Assembly (NCBI RefSeq): GCF_001518815.1
Contig: NZ_CP013987.1
Location: 1,033,001-1,097,000 of the forward strand
Source: Pseudomonas oryzihabitans
GTDB lineage: Bacteria > Pseudomonadota > Gammaproteobacteria > Pseudomonadales > Pseudomonadaceae
Length of the DNA stretch: 64,000 nucleotides
Direction of reading: 5' to 3'
The stretch's first letter is position 1. Each line of letters begins with the position of its first letter. The notes below the pieces were generated by a model, which was not told the origin of the DNA, made no database searches, and saw only the letters and a list, made by a program, of their open reading frames with translations. The position numbers and the translations under genes are program-made. This document shows positions 11,228 to 50,560 of this stretch, piece by piece.

Positions 11228-12277
11228 ATGAGGGCGATCGACAGCCAGACTTCGACGGCAACGACAGGGACTCAGCCTGCCAATCCGAGCGCTACCGGCA
11301 ATCAGGGCGCACCCGCCGCCGATTCCGCCAGCGCGGGGGGAACCCCAGCCGGCACCGATGTCGCGGTGGACCTGTCGCCCGCCGCCCAGCTCATTGCCAG
11401 GCTGTTGCCGGGCCAGTCGAACGGTAACAGCGATCTCGACAGCTTCATGCAGATCCTCCAGCAACAGATCCGCAGCCAGGGTACCGACGCCGCCGTGCTC
11501 GGCGAGATGCCCGAGGGGGCCAGTCCCGACCGTATCCAGTTGGCGAAGCAGGCGGCCAATCACCTGCTGGTGAGCTATTACCATGACGACAGTCGCTATG
11601 CCGACGCCTCCACCCAGGATCCCTTCGCCAACCTGGACAGCGACAGCCTGACGCGTAACGACAGTCGCTATGCCGACGCCTCCACCCAGGATCCCTTCGC
11701 CAACCTGGACAGCGACAGCCTGACGCGTAACGACAGTCGCTATGCCGACGCCTCCACCCAGGATCCCTTCGCCAACCTGGACAGCGACAGCCTGACGCGT
11801 ATCGCCAGCGACGATTCGGGCACCTTCACTTCGGCTGAACGTCAGCTTGCCTATTTCGAAGGCGCGCAGCGTGGCACCGATGCGGCCAACGTGGCCTTCT
11901 CCGGGCTTTCCCCGCAGGATCAGGGTGCCGCGTCCTGGAACTGGGCTCCCGCCGCCACGGAAGATGCCGGCATCCTCGGTACGCTGAATCCCGGCATGCC
12001 GGATTGGCATCCCAATCAGTTGAGCAGCCAGCTCATCAATGGCCTCAGCCCTGGCGGCGTGGCGACCGCTGCCGCTCAGGAAACCGCCCAGTTGTCGGCG
12101 CCGACCTTCAACATCAGCACCGGTGCCGATGGTGCACCCCAGTGGACGGTGCTGCCGGCGGACGGACAGGGCGCAGGGGCGAGCATCGCGCTGGATGGCA
12201 GTATCCTCACCCAGATGACCGGCACGACCACAGCGCCAGCGCTGTCGCTCTATCGCCAGATCGCCGCGTTCGGTTGA
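11228..12277 (+). CDS. Hypothetical protein with three identical internal repeats
   Basis: A 349-residue protein I do not recognise. The first 50 residues are Ser/Thr/Ala/Gly-rich and likely disordered, with no signal peptide or membrane segment. A helical-looking segment follows (residues 50-120). Then come three copies of a 24-residue unit beginning DSRYADAS and ending DSDSLTR (about residues 121-191), identical at the DNA level. The C-terminal part is Ala/Gly/Thr-rich and low in charge. GGAGG stands 9 nt before the ATG. It follows folA by 125 bases and could have its own promoter. The repeats look recently amplified, so copy number may vary between strains. Confidence 0.75.
   Translation: MRAIDSQTSTATTGTQPANPSATGNQGAPAADSASAGGTPAGTDVAVDLSPAAQLIARLLPGQSNGNSDLDSFMQILQQQIRSQGTDAAVLGEMPEGASPDRIQLAKQAANHLLVSYYHDDSRYADASTQDPFANLDSDSLTRNDSRYADASTQDPFANLDSDSLTRNDSRYADASTQDPFANLDSDSLTRIASDDSGTFTSAERQLAYFEGAQRGTDAANVAFSGLSPQDQGAASWNWAPAATEDAGILGTLNPGMPDWHPNQLSSQLINGLSPGGVATAAAQETAQLSAPTFNISTGADGAPQWTVLPADGQGAGASIALDGSILTQMTGTTTAPALSLYRQIAAFG
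11588..11800 (+). repeat. Three exact 72-bp tandem repeats within a coding sequence
   Basis: Units begin at 11588, 11660 and 11732. The first two are identical over 72 bases and the third over its first 69, diverging only in the last codon (AAC to ATC). The 24-codon length keeps the reading frame. Perfect synonymous identity points to very recent slippage or recombination. Confidence 0.95.
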
Positions 12278-12291
12278 GTGGGGCTGTTGGG

Positions 12292-12690
12292 CTCAGGCCT
12301 GCCTGTTGGGCTTCGACGATGAAGCTGTCTCAGCCCAACCTACGGGAGACTGGTAGGTTGGGCTAAGCGGCAGCGAAGCCCAACATCGTGGCGCTCAGGT
12401 CTGGCTGTTGGGCTTCGACGGTGAGGCCGTCTCAACCCAACCTACGGCGCGGTAGGTTGGCGCTGAGCGCAGCGAAGCCCAACATTGTAGCGCTCAGGTC
12501 TGGCTGTTGGGCTTCGACGATGAAGCCGTCTCAACCCAACCTACGGGTCGGTAGGTTGGGTTGAGCGCCAGCGAAGCCCAACATCGTGGCGCTCAGGCCT
12601 GCCTGTTGGGCTTCGACGATGAAGCCGTCTCAACCCAACCTACGGGTCGGTAGGTTGGGTTGAGCGCCAGCGAAGCCCAACAGCGTGTCG
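12292..12690. repeat. Tandem array of four ~100-bp palindromic repeat units
   Basis: Units start with CTCAGG at 12292, 12393, 12493 and 12592. Each holds GTTGGGCTTCGACG, CCCAACCTACGG, GGTAGGTTGGG and GCGAAGCCCAAC in order, so each can fold into two GTTGGG/CCCAAC hairpins. A single related element is at 47081-47173. The array fills the space between two convergent genes (stops at 12277 and 12695), a typical location for REP/BIME-like elements. No transposase of the RAYT type is in the window. Confidence 0.85.
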
Positions 12691-47579: not shown

Positions 47580-49391
47580 TCAACGATACCCTCGGGCTTG
47601 CAGATCGAACAGCTGGGCATAGCGGCCGCCGCTGGCCAGCAATTGGTCATGATCGCCGCGTTCGCGGATCTCGCCGCCCTCCAGCACCAGGATCTGATCG
47701 GCGTTGCGCACGCTGGAGAAGCGGTGCGAGATCAGCAGGGTCATGCGCTGCTGCGCCTGGGCCCGAAAACGCTCGAAGATCACTGCCTCGGCCGCGGCGT
47801 CCAGGGCGGCGGTGGGTTCGTCCAGCACCAGGATGTCGGCGTCTTCACGCATATAGGCCCGCGACAGGGCGATCTTCTGCCATTGCCCGCCAGACAGTTC
47901 CTGGCCACCGAGAAACCAGCGACCCAGCTGTGTCCCGTATCCCTCGCGCAAACCGGCGATGACGTCGTCGGCCAGGCCCTGTTCGGCCGCCTTGCGCCAG
48001 CGCGCTTCGTCAGCGAAGGCGGCGGTGTCGCCGACCCCCAGGTTCTCGCCCGCAGTGAGCTGGTAGCGGATGAAGTCCTGGAAGATGACCCCGATGCGTC
48101 GGTGCAGGGCCGCTGGCTGCCACTCCTGCAGATCGCTGCCATCGAGCAGGATGCGCCCTTTGGTAGGGGCATGCAGGCGGGTAAGCAGCTTGATCAGAGT
48201 GGTCTTGCCGGAGCCGTTGGCGCCTACCAGGGCCAGGCTCTGGCCCGGTGCCAGATGAAAGCTGATGTCCTCTAGCGTCGTCGCGGTCGCGCCTGGATAG
48301 GTAAAGCCGACCCCTTCGAATCTCAGCCCGTCGCCAGGATGGCTCCCCACCGTCAGGCTGCCGCCCTCGGCGCTGGTTGGCTGGCCGAGATAGTCATAAA
48401 GATTGCTCAGGTAGAGGCTGTCTTCATAGAGACCGCCAAGGGCGGTAAGGCTCGCGCTGACCGCCGCCTGGCCCTGGCGGAACAGCGTCAGATAGAGGGT
48501 CATCTGGCCCAGGCTCAGGCGACCCCGCACGGTATCGAGCACCACCCAGGCGTAGGCGGCATAGAAGGCGAGGGTGCCGAGGAGGCCAAAGACGAAACCC
48601 CAACCGTCGCGTCTCAGGGTGAGGCGGCGATCCTCGGCATAGAGTTTGGCGAAGGTGGTGCGGTAGCGCTCCAACAGCAGCGGCGCCAGGCCGAACAGCT
48701 TGACCTCCTTGATGTAGGCCTCATGGGAAAGCAGGGTTTCCAGGTAGGTCTGGCGACGGGTCTCGGGCGCGCGCCGGCTGAAGAGACGAAAGGCATCACC
48801 GGAAAAGCGCGCCTCGGCCAGAAACACCGGAAGGGCACCCACCACCAGCAGCAGTAGCGCCCAAGGCGAGAAATGCACCAGCAGCACGGCGAAGCTGACC
48901 AGGGAGATGAGGTTCTGCAATAGGGTCAGGGACTTGGTCACCAGCGCCAGCGGCCTTACCGACGCCTCGCGCCGGGCCCGCACCAGCTTGTCGTAGAAGT
49001 CGGCGTCCTCGAATTGCGCTAGCGACAGGGTCTGGGCCTTTTCCAGTATCAGCAGGTTCACCGTCTGCCCCAGGCGTACCCGCAGCAGCGATTGCTGCAC
49101 CGACAGCAGACGCTGGGCACCGGCCAGGGCTGCCAGGACCCCGGCTTCCGCCAGCACGAACTTCAGCACTGGCCACAGAGGGGCCTGACCCTGCTCGGCA
49201 TGTAGCTGCATGGCTGCCACCACGGCATCGACGATACGCTGCCCGAGCCAGGCGGCCAGGGCCGGCAGCAGGCCGGCGACCAGAGTCGCCAGGACCAGGC
49301 CGACCAGCAGCGCGGGCGAGGTGCTCCAGACCAGGCCGGCAGCACGGCGCATCTGCAATTGCACGATAGCGAAGGAGGTAGAGAGGGCCAT
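47580..49391 (-). CDS. ABC transporter, fused permease and ATPase
   Basis: A 603-residue half-transporter that should work as a dimer. About six membrane segments occupy residues 20-310. The ATPase follows with Walker A GANGSGKTT, signature LSGGQWQKIALSRAY, Walker B ILVLDEPTAALDA and switch His in LISHR. It resembles bacterial exporters of the MsbA/LapB type or peptide/antibiotic-export class; the first loop lacks the C39 peptidase found in bacteriocin exporters. It is divergent from the small-RNA array, whose first unit begins about 60 bases from its start codon. Substrate unknown. Confidence 0.88.
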   Translation of the reverse strand: MALSTSFAIVQLQMRRAAGLVWSTSPALLVGLVLATLVAGLLPALAAWLGQRIVDAVVAAMQLHAEQGQAPLWPVLKFVLAEAGVLAALAGAQRLLSVQQSLLRVRLGQTVNLLILEKAQTLSLAQFEDADFYDKLVRARREASVRPLALVTKSLTLLQNLISLVSFAVLLVHFSPWALLLLVVGALPVFLAEARFSGDAFRLFSRRAPETRRQTYLETLLSHEAYIKEVKLFGLAPLLLERYRTTFAKLYAEDRRLTLRRDGWGFVFGLLGTLAFYAAYAWVVLDTVRGRLSLGQMTLYLTLFRQGQAAVSASLTALGGLYEDSLYLSNLYDYLGQPTSAEGGSLTVGSHPGDGLRFEGVGFTYPGATATTLEDISFHLAPGQSLALVGANGSGKTTLIKLLTRLHAPTKGRILLDGSDLQEWQPAALHRRIGVIFQDFIRYQLTAGENLGVGDTAAFADEARWRKAAEQGLADDVIAGLREGYGTQLGRWFLGGQELSGGQWQKIALSRAYMREDADILVLDEPTAALDAAAEAVIFERFRAQAQQRMTLLISHRFSSVRNADQILVLEGGEIRERGDHDQLLASGGRYAQLFDLQARGYR

Positions 49392-49451
49392 GAGAGATCT
49401 TCGGCTGGAATCAGCATTAGTCGAAACGACGGTCGCGGTGTTCCCGGGGGT

Positions 49452-49470
49452 ATGGCAAAAGGCTTACACG
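49452..49470 (+). promoter_or_regulatory. Candidate GacA upstream element (first unit; repeated in all five)
   Basis: Position -70 relative to the sRNA start holds ATGGCAAAAGG followed by CTTACA, the exact right half of the GacA consensus TGTAAG-N6-CTTACA. The left half is poorly kept. The same element recurs at about 49680, 49909, 50138 and 50366, always the same distance from the sRNA. Confidence 0.5.
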
Positions 49471-49524
49471 GCGTGGTGTCACCTGGCCATGTTGCGGTCC
49501 CGGCAGGCTGCGTAATCTACACCC

Positions 49525-49637
49525 ATCAGCCGCGCAGGATGCGCAGCCCTGAGGTCACGGATGAAGACCAGGCCAGGATGGCGCCTGACAGGACGTTGGG
49601 ATGGTCGCAACAAACAACCCGCTTCGGCGGGTTTTTT
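49525..49637 (+). ncRNA. RsmX/Y/Z-like regulatory RNA, copy 1
   Basis: A predicted ~113-nt RNA that would bind and sequester RsmA/CsrA. A -10-like TAATCT (49513-49518) sits 12 bases before the inferred start. Five GGA motifs follow in order: GCGC-AGGAT-GCGC (hairpin loop), CACGGATG, GCC-AGGAT-GGC (hairpin loop), ACAGGACG and TTGGGATGG. It ends in CCCGC-TTCG-GCGGG and six T (49618-49637). Size, repeated loop-borne GGA and the terminator fit the RsmX/RsmY/RsmZ group. The 5' end is inferred. Confidence 0.78.
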
Positions 49638-49752
49638 GTTGCCTGGGATTCAGGGCCGAGCAGGGGTGCTGGCGAAGGGATGGCAAAAGGCTTACACGGT
49701 GTGGTGTCACCTGGCCATGTTGCGGTCCCGGCAGGCTGCGTAATCTACACCC

Positions 49753-49866
49753 CATCAGCCGCGCAGGATGCGCAGCCCTGAGGTCACGGATGAAGACCAG
49801 GCCAGGATGGCGCCTGACAGGATGTTGGGATGGTCGCAACAAACAACCCGCTTCGGCGGGTTTTTT
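49753..49866 (+). ncRNA. RsmX/Y/Z-like regulatory RNA, copy 2
   Basis: Same plan as copy 1, with TAATCT at 49741-49746, five GGA motifs and terminator ending at 49866. One extra C lies near the inferred start, and the fourth motif reads AGGATG instead of AGGACG, which keeps the GGA core. Confidence 0.78.
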
Positions 49867-49981
49867 GTTGCCTGGGATTCAGGGCCGAGCAGGGGTGCTG
49901 GCGAAGGTATGGCAAAAGGCTTACACGGCGTGGTGTCACCTGGCCATGTTGCGAGCCCGGCAGGCTGCGTAATCTACACCC

Positions 49982-50095
49982 CATCAGCCGCGCAGGATGC
50001 GCAGCCCTGAGGTCACGGATGAAGACCAGGCCAGGATGGCGCCTGACAGGACGTTGGGATGGTCGCAACAAACAACCCGCTTCGGCGGGTTTTTT
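49982..50095 (+). ncRNA. RsmX/Y/Z-like regulatory RNA, copy 3
   Basis: TAATCT at 49970-49975, five GGA motifs as in copy 1 (fourth is AGGACG), terminator T-run at 50090-50095. The segment before the -10 box reads CGAGCCCGG in place of CGGTCCCGG. Confidence 0.78.
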
Positions 50096-50210
50096 GTTGC
50101 CTGGGATTCAGGGCCGAGCAGGGGTGCTGGCGAAGGTATGGCAAAAGGCTTACACGGTGTGGTGTCACCTGGCCATGTTGCGAGCCCGGCAGGCTGCGTA
50201 ATCTACCTAC

Positions 50211-50323
50211 ATCAGCGGCGCAGGATGCGCAGCCCTGAGGTCACGGATGAAGACCAGGCCAGGATGGCGCCTGACAGGACGTTGGGATGGTCGCAACAAA
50301 CAACCCGCTTCGGCGGGTTTTTT
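50211..50323 (+). ncRNA. RsmX/Y/Z-like regulatory RNA, copy 4
   Basis: TAATCT at 50199-50204 and terminator T-run at 50318-50323. This is the most divergent 5' end: CTACATCAGCGGCGCAGG replaces the usual CCCATCAGCCGCGCAGG, but the first GGA hairpin (GCGC-AGGAT-GCGC) and the other four motifs are intact. Confidence 0.77.
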
Positions 50324-50438
50324 GTTGCCTGGGATTCAGGGCCGAGCAGGGGTGCTGGCTGAGGTATGGCAAAAGGCTTACACGGTGTGGTGTCACCTGG
50401 CCATGTTGCGATCCCGGCAGGCTGCGTAATCTACACCC

Positions 50439-50551
50439 ATCAGCCGCGCAGGATGCGCAGCCCTGAGGTCACGGATGAAGACCAGGCCAGGATGGCGCCT
50501 GACAGGATGTTGGGATGGTCGCAACAAACAACCCGCTTCGGCGGGTTTTTT
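50439..50551 (+). ncRNA. RsmX/Y/Z-like regulatory RNA, copy 5
   Basis: TAATCT at 50427-50432, five GGA motifs (fourth is AGGATG), terminator T-run at 50546-50551. Its terminator lies ten bases from the end of the convergent diguanylate cyclase gene and may serve both directions. Confidence 0.78.
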
Positions 50552-50560
50552 GTTTGGGCG

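What the first reader, a model, noticed from the sequence alone, without database searches (positions are those of the whole stretch)
49449..50551. Five tandem RsmX/Y/Z-like RNA genes, each with its own promoter element and terminator
Seen: five ~229-bp units, almost identical, each with a CTTACA element, TAATCT box, about 113 bases holding five GGA motifs (two presented in hairpin loops GCGC-AGGAT-GCGC and GCC-AGGAT-GGC), and the terminator CCCGC-TTCG-GCGGG-T6. Known: RsmX, RsmY and RsmZ are ~110-130-nt RNAs with repeated GGA loops that titrate RsmA/CsrA; GacA activates them through TGTAAG-N6-CTTACA; some pseudomonads, such as P. syringae, have several rsmX copies. Inference: the array gives 25 GGA motifs in one place, a gene-dosage amplifier of the Gac/Rsm switch. 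A head-to-tail array in which each unit has its own control region is unusual and should be prone to copy-number change by recombination.
Basis: partly seen in the sequence, partly recalled or inferred. Interest (0 to 1): 0.92.

Follow-up and report, generated by a model that had tools for sequence, protein, structure and literature searches.

The report
Five tandem RsmX regulatory RNA genes
A Pseudomonas genome carries five near-identical copies, head to tail, of a known small RNA gene (rsmX) thought to mop up a regulatory protein; the gene itself is ordinary, but the number of copies in the row differs between related genomes, which offers a natural dose series.

Summary
Window 49449-50551 has five head-to-tail units 228-229 bp apart, each scoring above Rfam's cut-off for rsmX (67.4-69.2 bits; cut-off 56), with CTTACA, TAATCT, five GGA and a terminator. 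The perfect palindrome stands at the genome's rsmY-like and rsmZ genes.

Best reading: five separately promoted rsmX genes raising the dose of a GacA-driven RsmA sponge. The family, tandem rsmX pairs and five-copy genomes are in print; a longer row I did not find in my searches.

New here: eight genomes of the genus have 5, 5, 4, 3, 3, 2, 2 and 1 units. Units in rows of three or more resemble each other more than units elsewhere. In 398 family genomes, rsmX rows of three or more at this period were seen in five of this genus and one other. Transcription, RsmA binding and strain-level instability were not tested. New variant of a known kind; moderate interest.

The parts
49449..49677 (+). rsmX unit 1 (box, promoter, RNA, terminator, spacer)
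49677..49906 (+). rsmX unit 2 (boundary approximate, from the blastn hit)
49906..50135 (+). rsmX unit 3 (boundary approximate)
50135..50362 (+). rsmX unit 4 (boundary approximate)
50363..50554 (+). rsmX unit 5, without the spacer
49522..49637 (+). RsmX RNA 1
   Evidence: RF02144, 67.4 bits
49751..49866 (+). RsmX RNA 2
   Evidence: RF02144, 68.2 bits
49980..50095 (+). RsmX RNA 3
   Evidence: RF02144, 67.4 bits
50208..50323 (+). RsmX RNA 4
   Evidence: RF02144, 69.2 bits
50436..50551 (+). RsmX RNA 5
   Evidence: RF02144, 68.2 bits
49451..49468 (+). rsmX-type GacA box TATGGC-AAAAGG-CTTACA of unit 1 (CTTACA again at 49691, 49920, 50149, 50377)
   Evidence: published rsmX box TATAGCGAAACGCTTACA (PMC7911923 section 3.1)
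49513..49518 (+). TAATCT (-10-like) box of unit 1; again at 49741, 49970, 50199, 50427
49618..49637 (+). intrinsic terminator CCCGC-TTCG-GCGGG-T6 of unit 1; again at 49847, 50076, 50304, 50532
47580..49391 (-). divergent ABC transporter gene that marks the locus in relatives
   Evidence: Pfam ABC_tran 106.7 bits
50561..52087 (-). convergent GAF-PAS-GGDEF diguanylate cyclase gene downstream
   Evidence: Pfam GGDEF 154.3 bits

Best explanation
Five tandem copies of the sponge RNA gene rsmX. Each copy is a complete gene: an rsmX-type GacA box, a sigma-70-like -10, an RNA of about 113 nt with five GGA motifs (about three well exposed), and its own terminator. When GacS/GacA is active, five promoters in parallel should make RsmX, which binds RsmA and frees its target mRNAs; more copies mean more sponge per active GacA. 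The row arose by tandem duplication of one gene-plus-spacer unit, and it grows, shrinks and is homogenised by recombination between units. Shown here: identity of the RNAs, anatomy, presence of GacA-type, RsmA and rsmZ genes, copy number per genome, within-genome likeness of units. Inferred: transcription of all five, GacA control, RsmA binding, a dosage effect, and unequal crossing-over or gene conversion as the means.
For: Rfam rsmX above cut-off for 5 of 5 units. Five GGA in 25 of 25 units of eight genomes. In that alignment 20 of 115 RNA columns vary against 38 of 75 promoter columns. TAATCT is kept in 24 of 25 (TACTCT in EpS/L25). CTTACA is in 25 of 25, but the units were located by it; independently, the rsmX matches in these eight genomes over cut-off number 25 as well. 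Genome-wide: 5 rsmX, one rsmY-like RNA (49.5 bits, cut-off 57), one rsmZ (78.1 bits, cut-off 44), one full CsrA (89.2 bits) and one GacA-type match over cut-off (306.9 bits, cut-off 280). Copy number: own 5, DE0602 5, KNF2016 4, YY7 3, S3C122 3, G007 2, RY24 2, EpS/L25 1. Mean unit identity within genomes is 0.937-0.974 for the five rows of 3-5, against 0.891 between genomes (266 pairs). The tree needs 9 label changes (least possible 7) against 17.4 in shuffles, 0 of 200 as low; the window's five are one side of a branch, 99/94.
Against: No transcript or protein-binding data. Two of five GGA are often paired in predicted folds. Only 4 of 27 predicted pairs of a 16-row alignment have a change on both sides. 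The two-copy genomes are not homogenised: unit identity 0.868 and 0.862, below the between-genome mean, and the nearest other unit lies in the same genome for 19 of 24 units, not all. DE0602 and S3C122 need 2 changes each on the tree. GacS was not searched for. The copy series comes from one genome per species, and drafts can lose copies.
Confidence: 0.85

Rival explanations
1. The row is real rsmX, but extra copies serve different inputs rather than dose: promoters drift apart so that copies answer to different regulators.
For: In the two-copy genomes G007 and RY24 the promoters of the two copies are 73% and 72% identical while the RNAs are 95.7%; a variable block lies between GGCCATGT and GCGTAATCT. 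In Vibrio tasmaniensis csrB copies are differently controlled (PMC6262261, passages).
Against: In the window the promoters are 95.2% identical on average and keep the same box type and -10.
Confidence: 0.15
2. The row is a neutral by-product of recombination, with no effect on dose because one copy already suffices or because feedback compensates.
For: Copy number varies 1-5 among relatives; the genome also has rsmZ and an rsmY-like RNA.
Against: GGA motifs and -10 are kept in nearly every copy, which old neutral copies should lose; young rows could still be neutral.
Confidence: 0.25
3. Leaky terminators yield longer multi-unit RNAs, as PrrH arises by read-through of the tandem prrF genes, and these are the functional product.
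For: Tandem layout with 36-37 bp between terminator region and next unit; PrrH precedent (PMC4211561, passages).
Against: Every unit in the window keeps the GC hairpin with T6 and its own promoter elements.
Confidence: 0.07
4. Assembly artefact: one or two genes multiplied in the assembly.
For: Contigs end inside the row in 102515, NBRC 102199 and G011, so such rows are hard to assemble.
Against: The genome is one contig and no two of the five units are identical, although two pairs of RNAs are; rows of 4 and 3 lie in records titled complete chromosomes, KNF2016 and YY7.
Confidence: 0.03

Closest known systems
rsmX (Rfam RF02144), Gac/Rsm system of Pseudomonas
   Same: Covariance score above cut-off in 5 of 5, GGA motifs, rsmX-type box, terminator
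   Different: Five copies head to tail at one locus
Tandem rsmX-1/rsmX-2 of P. brassicacearum NFM421, P. fluorescens F113 and P. stutzeri (PMC7911923: section 3.1 and passages with table 1 seen)
   Same: Head-to-tail rsmX genes about 210-240 nt apart; a GacA box upstream of each in NFM421
   Different: Two copies at 75-81.5% identity there; five at about 97% here, and 1-5 among relatives
rsmX1-5 of P. syringae (Moll 2010 not held; as quoted in PMC7911923)
   Same: Five rsmX per genome
   Different: The table passage lists one tandem pair (rsmX-3/-4, 84-87% identity); I did not see where the others lie
RsmZ1-7 (RsmZ8 in one passage) and RsmY of Azotobacter vinelandii (PMC11330419, passages)
   Same: Many GacA-controlled Rsm sRNAs in one genome
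   Different: RsmZ family; their arrangement on the chromosome was not in the passages seen
csrB1-4 of Vibrio tasmaniensis, csrB2/csrB3 neighbours of Aeromonas salmonicida (PMC6262261, passages)
   Same: Sponge RNA multiplied by duplication
   Different: No row of near-identical units in the passages seen; the word tandem does not occur in the paper's main text
Other tandem sibling sRNAs: PrrF1/2, OmrA/B, AbcR1/2, some csRNAs (PMC4211561, passages)
   Same: sRNA genes duplicated head to tail
   Different: Pairs in the passages seen; that review lists Csr/Rsm RNAs as 2-3, distal

Membership tests
rsmX (RF02144) | Match to the curated covariance model above its gathering score | tested here: met
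   67.4-69.2 bits against 56, 5 of 5 units
rsmX (RF02144) | Several GGA motifs, some in hairpin loops | tested here: met
   Five GGA in each; first three mostly unpaired, last two often paired in the three own units folded
rsmX (RF02144) | rsmX-type upstream box, published as TATAGCGAAACGCTTACA | tested here: met
   TATGGC-N6-CTTACA in 4 of 5 own units, GATGGC in unit 2; over 25 units of eight genomes TATGGC 21, GATGGC 2, AATAGC 2. Of 20 rsmX stretches from other genomes 18 have CTTACA and in none is TGTAAG the left half
   Absent from the row, present at own rsmY-like and rsmZ. Not taken as defining: the published rsmX box lacks it too
rsmX (RF02144) | Rho-independent terminator at the 3' end | tested here: met
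   5 of 5
rsmX (RF02144) | Transcription dependent on GacA | not testable with these tools
   GacA-type gene present; needs a mutant
rsmX (RF02144) | Binding of RsmA/CsrA | not testable with these tools
   CsrA-family gene present; needs a binding assay
RsmY (RF00195) | Score above 57 bits | tested here: not met
   Row units 33.8-35.7 bits
PrrB_RsmZ (RF00166) | Score above 44 bits | tested here: not met
   The only own match at E 0.001 is at 1399551, outside the window

The most novel reading that the evidence does not exclude
The row is a recombination-driven dial: unit number changes often enough within a strain to create heritable differences in Gac/Rsm output, so that a population hedges between RsmA-repressed and RsmA-relieved lifestyles without mutating gacS or gacA.
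Probability: 0.12. Interest if true: 0.7.

Novelty: new variant of a known kind. Interest (0 to 1): 0.42.

Why it matters
Why bacteria keep several near-redundant sponge RNAs is an open question. Related genomes that carry 1, 2, 3, 4 or 5 units of one rsmX type offer a natural dosage series, and rows of about 97% identical 229-bp repeats should be easy to shorten by recombination, so dose and instability can both be measured directly. If strain-level change proves frequent, the row would be a tunable setting of a global regulator.

Tried and rejected
Protein-coding reading: several ORFs of 60-140 aa cross the row, but unit spacing is 226-229 bp across relatives, mostly not a multiple of three, and conservation follows RNA and promoter elements. 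Rejected; no formal coding test was run.

RsmY or RsmZ identity: lower or no score. Chance repeat: rejected.

Rows elsewhere: a pattern of three CTTACA with a period of 207-237 bp matched 7 of 398 family genomes: own, G001, G003, G008, G012, G240 and G372. Rfam finds rsmX three times at the G240 place and nothing over any cut-off at the G372 place. The reversed control pattern matched 6 of the 398 by my count. In the order, 4 of 390 matched: own and three others whose places have no Rfam match; the control matched 11 of the 390 by my count. The pattern misses longer periods, CTTACG boxes and rows split by contig ends, so this is a lower bound. The listing of matches for 298 family genomes was cut, so I searched again the 10 genomes outside the genus that had three or more matches: only G240 has three in a row; G256, G270 and G286 (4-5 copies, unnamed) have them dispersed or in pairs.

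Locus loci of P. luteola, P. duriflava and P. asuensis beside the related ABC gene: no Rfam match.

Papers: oryzihabitans with rsmX, 0; rsmX with tandem and Pseudomonas, 20; rsmX1 or rsmX5, 15; copy-number terms, 12; rsmX, stutzeri, tandem and GacA, 2; oryzihabitans with GacA, 3, listing only; tandem sRNA array terms, 0. 'Not found in print' rests on these and on an open-access library. Most listed papers were not opened; I read passages of PMC7911923, PMC4211561, PMC7366521, PMC11330419, PMC2375449 and PMC6262261, and one whole section (3.1) of PMC7911923.

Full report
What is there. Window 49449-50551 holds five head-to-tail units. CTTACA recurs at 49463, 49691, 49920, 50149 and 50377. The duplicated unit begins just before the GacA-type box and ends, after the terminator, with a spacer; unit 5 lacks the spacer and leads into unique DNA. 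All five RNA parts match Rfam rsmX at full length above the curated cut-off, 67.4-69.2 bits against 56, and are the only matches over any cut-off in the window. RNAs 1 and 3 are identical, and 2 and 5.

Anatomy. From 5' to 3' each unit has the box (TATGGC-AAAAGG-CTTACA; GATGGC in unit 2), a GGCCATGT block, a variable block, TAATCT, the RNA, and CCCGC-TTCG-GCGGG-T6. Its left half is not in the row, but the full palindrome stands upstream of the genome's rsmY-like RNA (388209) and rsmZ (1399551). This looks like a feature of rsmX rather than decay: a published rsmX box is TATAGCGAAACGCTTACA (PMC7911923 section 3.1), and of 20 stretches with rsmX from other genomes 18 have CTTACA and in none is TGTAAG the left half. 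Whether the half-conserved box is a weaker GacA site is untested; if so, the row would be a set of weak promoters beside two strong ones.

Folding. Unpaired probabilities for GG of the first three GGA are 0.67-0.95 in own units 1, 2 and 4; the fourth is 0.20-0.50 and the fifth 0.06-0.68. A 16-row alignment with relatives gives 27 pairs, 4 with changes on both sides in at least one row. That is compatible with the family but thin when taken alone; the Rfam score carries the weight.

The circuit in the genome. One GacA-type match over its cut-off (306.9 bits, cut-off 280), one full RsmA/CsrA (89.2 bits) and a second, partial hit just over cut-off (28.7 bits, cut-off 27), one rsmZ (78.1 bits) and one rsmY-like RNA below cut-off (49.5 against 57 bits). 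GacS was not searched for. Together with the row: seven Rsm-type RNAs.

Relatives. The neighbouring ABC protein is 95-97% identical to eight loci titled P. oryzihabitans, P. rhizoryzae or Pseudomonas sp., so I place it in the P. oryzihabitans group by inference. I equate G001 with KNF2016, G003 with YY7, G008 with DE0602, G009 with RY24, G010 with EpS/L25 and G012 with S3C122 because contig lengths agree. Of 13 genomes in the genus, 12 have rsmX over cut-off. Counts in a row: own 5, DE0602 5, KNF2016 4, YY7 3, S3C122 3, G007 2, RY24 2, EpS/L25 1. G011 shows one unit cut by a contig start; G006 shows none and was not resolved; G002, G004 and G005 have dispersed copies. Of the eight ABC loci scanned, six show rsmX just upstream of the ABC gene, as in the window; in the other two (102515, NBRC 102199) the contig ends within the first unit. 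I did not check the ABC gene beside G007's row.

Evolution. In 25 complete units of eight genomes the RNA varies at 20 of 115 columns and the promoter at 38 of 75. Mean unit identity within a genome is 0.974 (own), 0.966 (KNF2016), 0.965 (DE0602), 0.956 (YY7) and 0.937 (S3C122), but 0.868 (G007) and 0.862 (RY24) in the two-copy genomes, against 0.891 between genomes; the nearest other unit is in the same genome for 19 of 24 units. The window's five units are one side of a branch (99/94). Copy 2 of G007 groups with copy 2 of RY24 (89/79), and their copies 1 lie in another part of the tree. The simplest story is an old pair, one lineage of which was later amplified and homogenised in several species. 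The tree rests on 196 columns and 12 of 22 inner branches are open, so finer claims are not warranted.

How unusual. In 298 family genomes 142 have rsmX at E 1e-7. Rows of three or more rsmX with a period of 207-237 bp were found in five members of this genus and in G240 (three units, 228 bp apart) among 398 family genomes. Tandem pairs and five-copy genomes are in print (PMC7911923); I found no report of longer rows in the searches listed under Tried and rejected.

Mechanism. Most likely the row multiplies a GacA-driven RsmA sponge. Identity and anatomy are shown; expression, GacA control, binding and dosage are inferred from the family. The copy-number series among relatives is the part a specialist could use, and strain-level instability is the open, testable question.

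Noticed in passing
I read 20 of these 28: 20 of 20 have CTTACA 48-64 nt upstream of the RNA stretch and 4-6 GGA. G002 shows only one CsrA match, so sponge number does not track RsmA number there.
   Followed up: partly
L120 (own genome 388000-388500): The rsmY-like RNA is about 177 nt from just after its -10 to the T run, with eight GGA, scores below the RsmY cut-off (49.5 of 57 bits) and has a perfect TGTAAG-N6-CTTACA.
   Followed up: partly
L189 (own genome 1862200-1862900): The second CsrA-type gene (RsmN-like by recall) is a 73-aa ORF in KNF2016 (L190); in the window's genome the frame runs through a short repeated stretch into a 142-aa ORF, so its C-terminal end differs.
   Followed up: no
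   Followed up: partly
window 12291-12687 and 11586-11808: Two other tandem repeats: 99 bp x 4.0 (91% matches) and 72 bp x 3.1 (98% matches).
   Followed up: no
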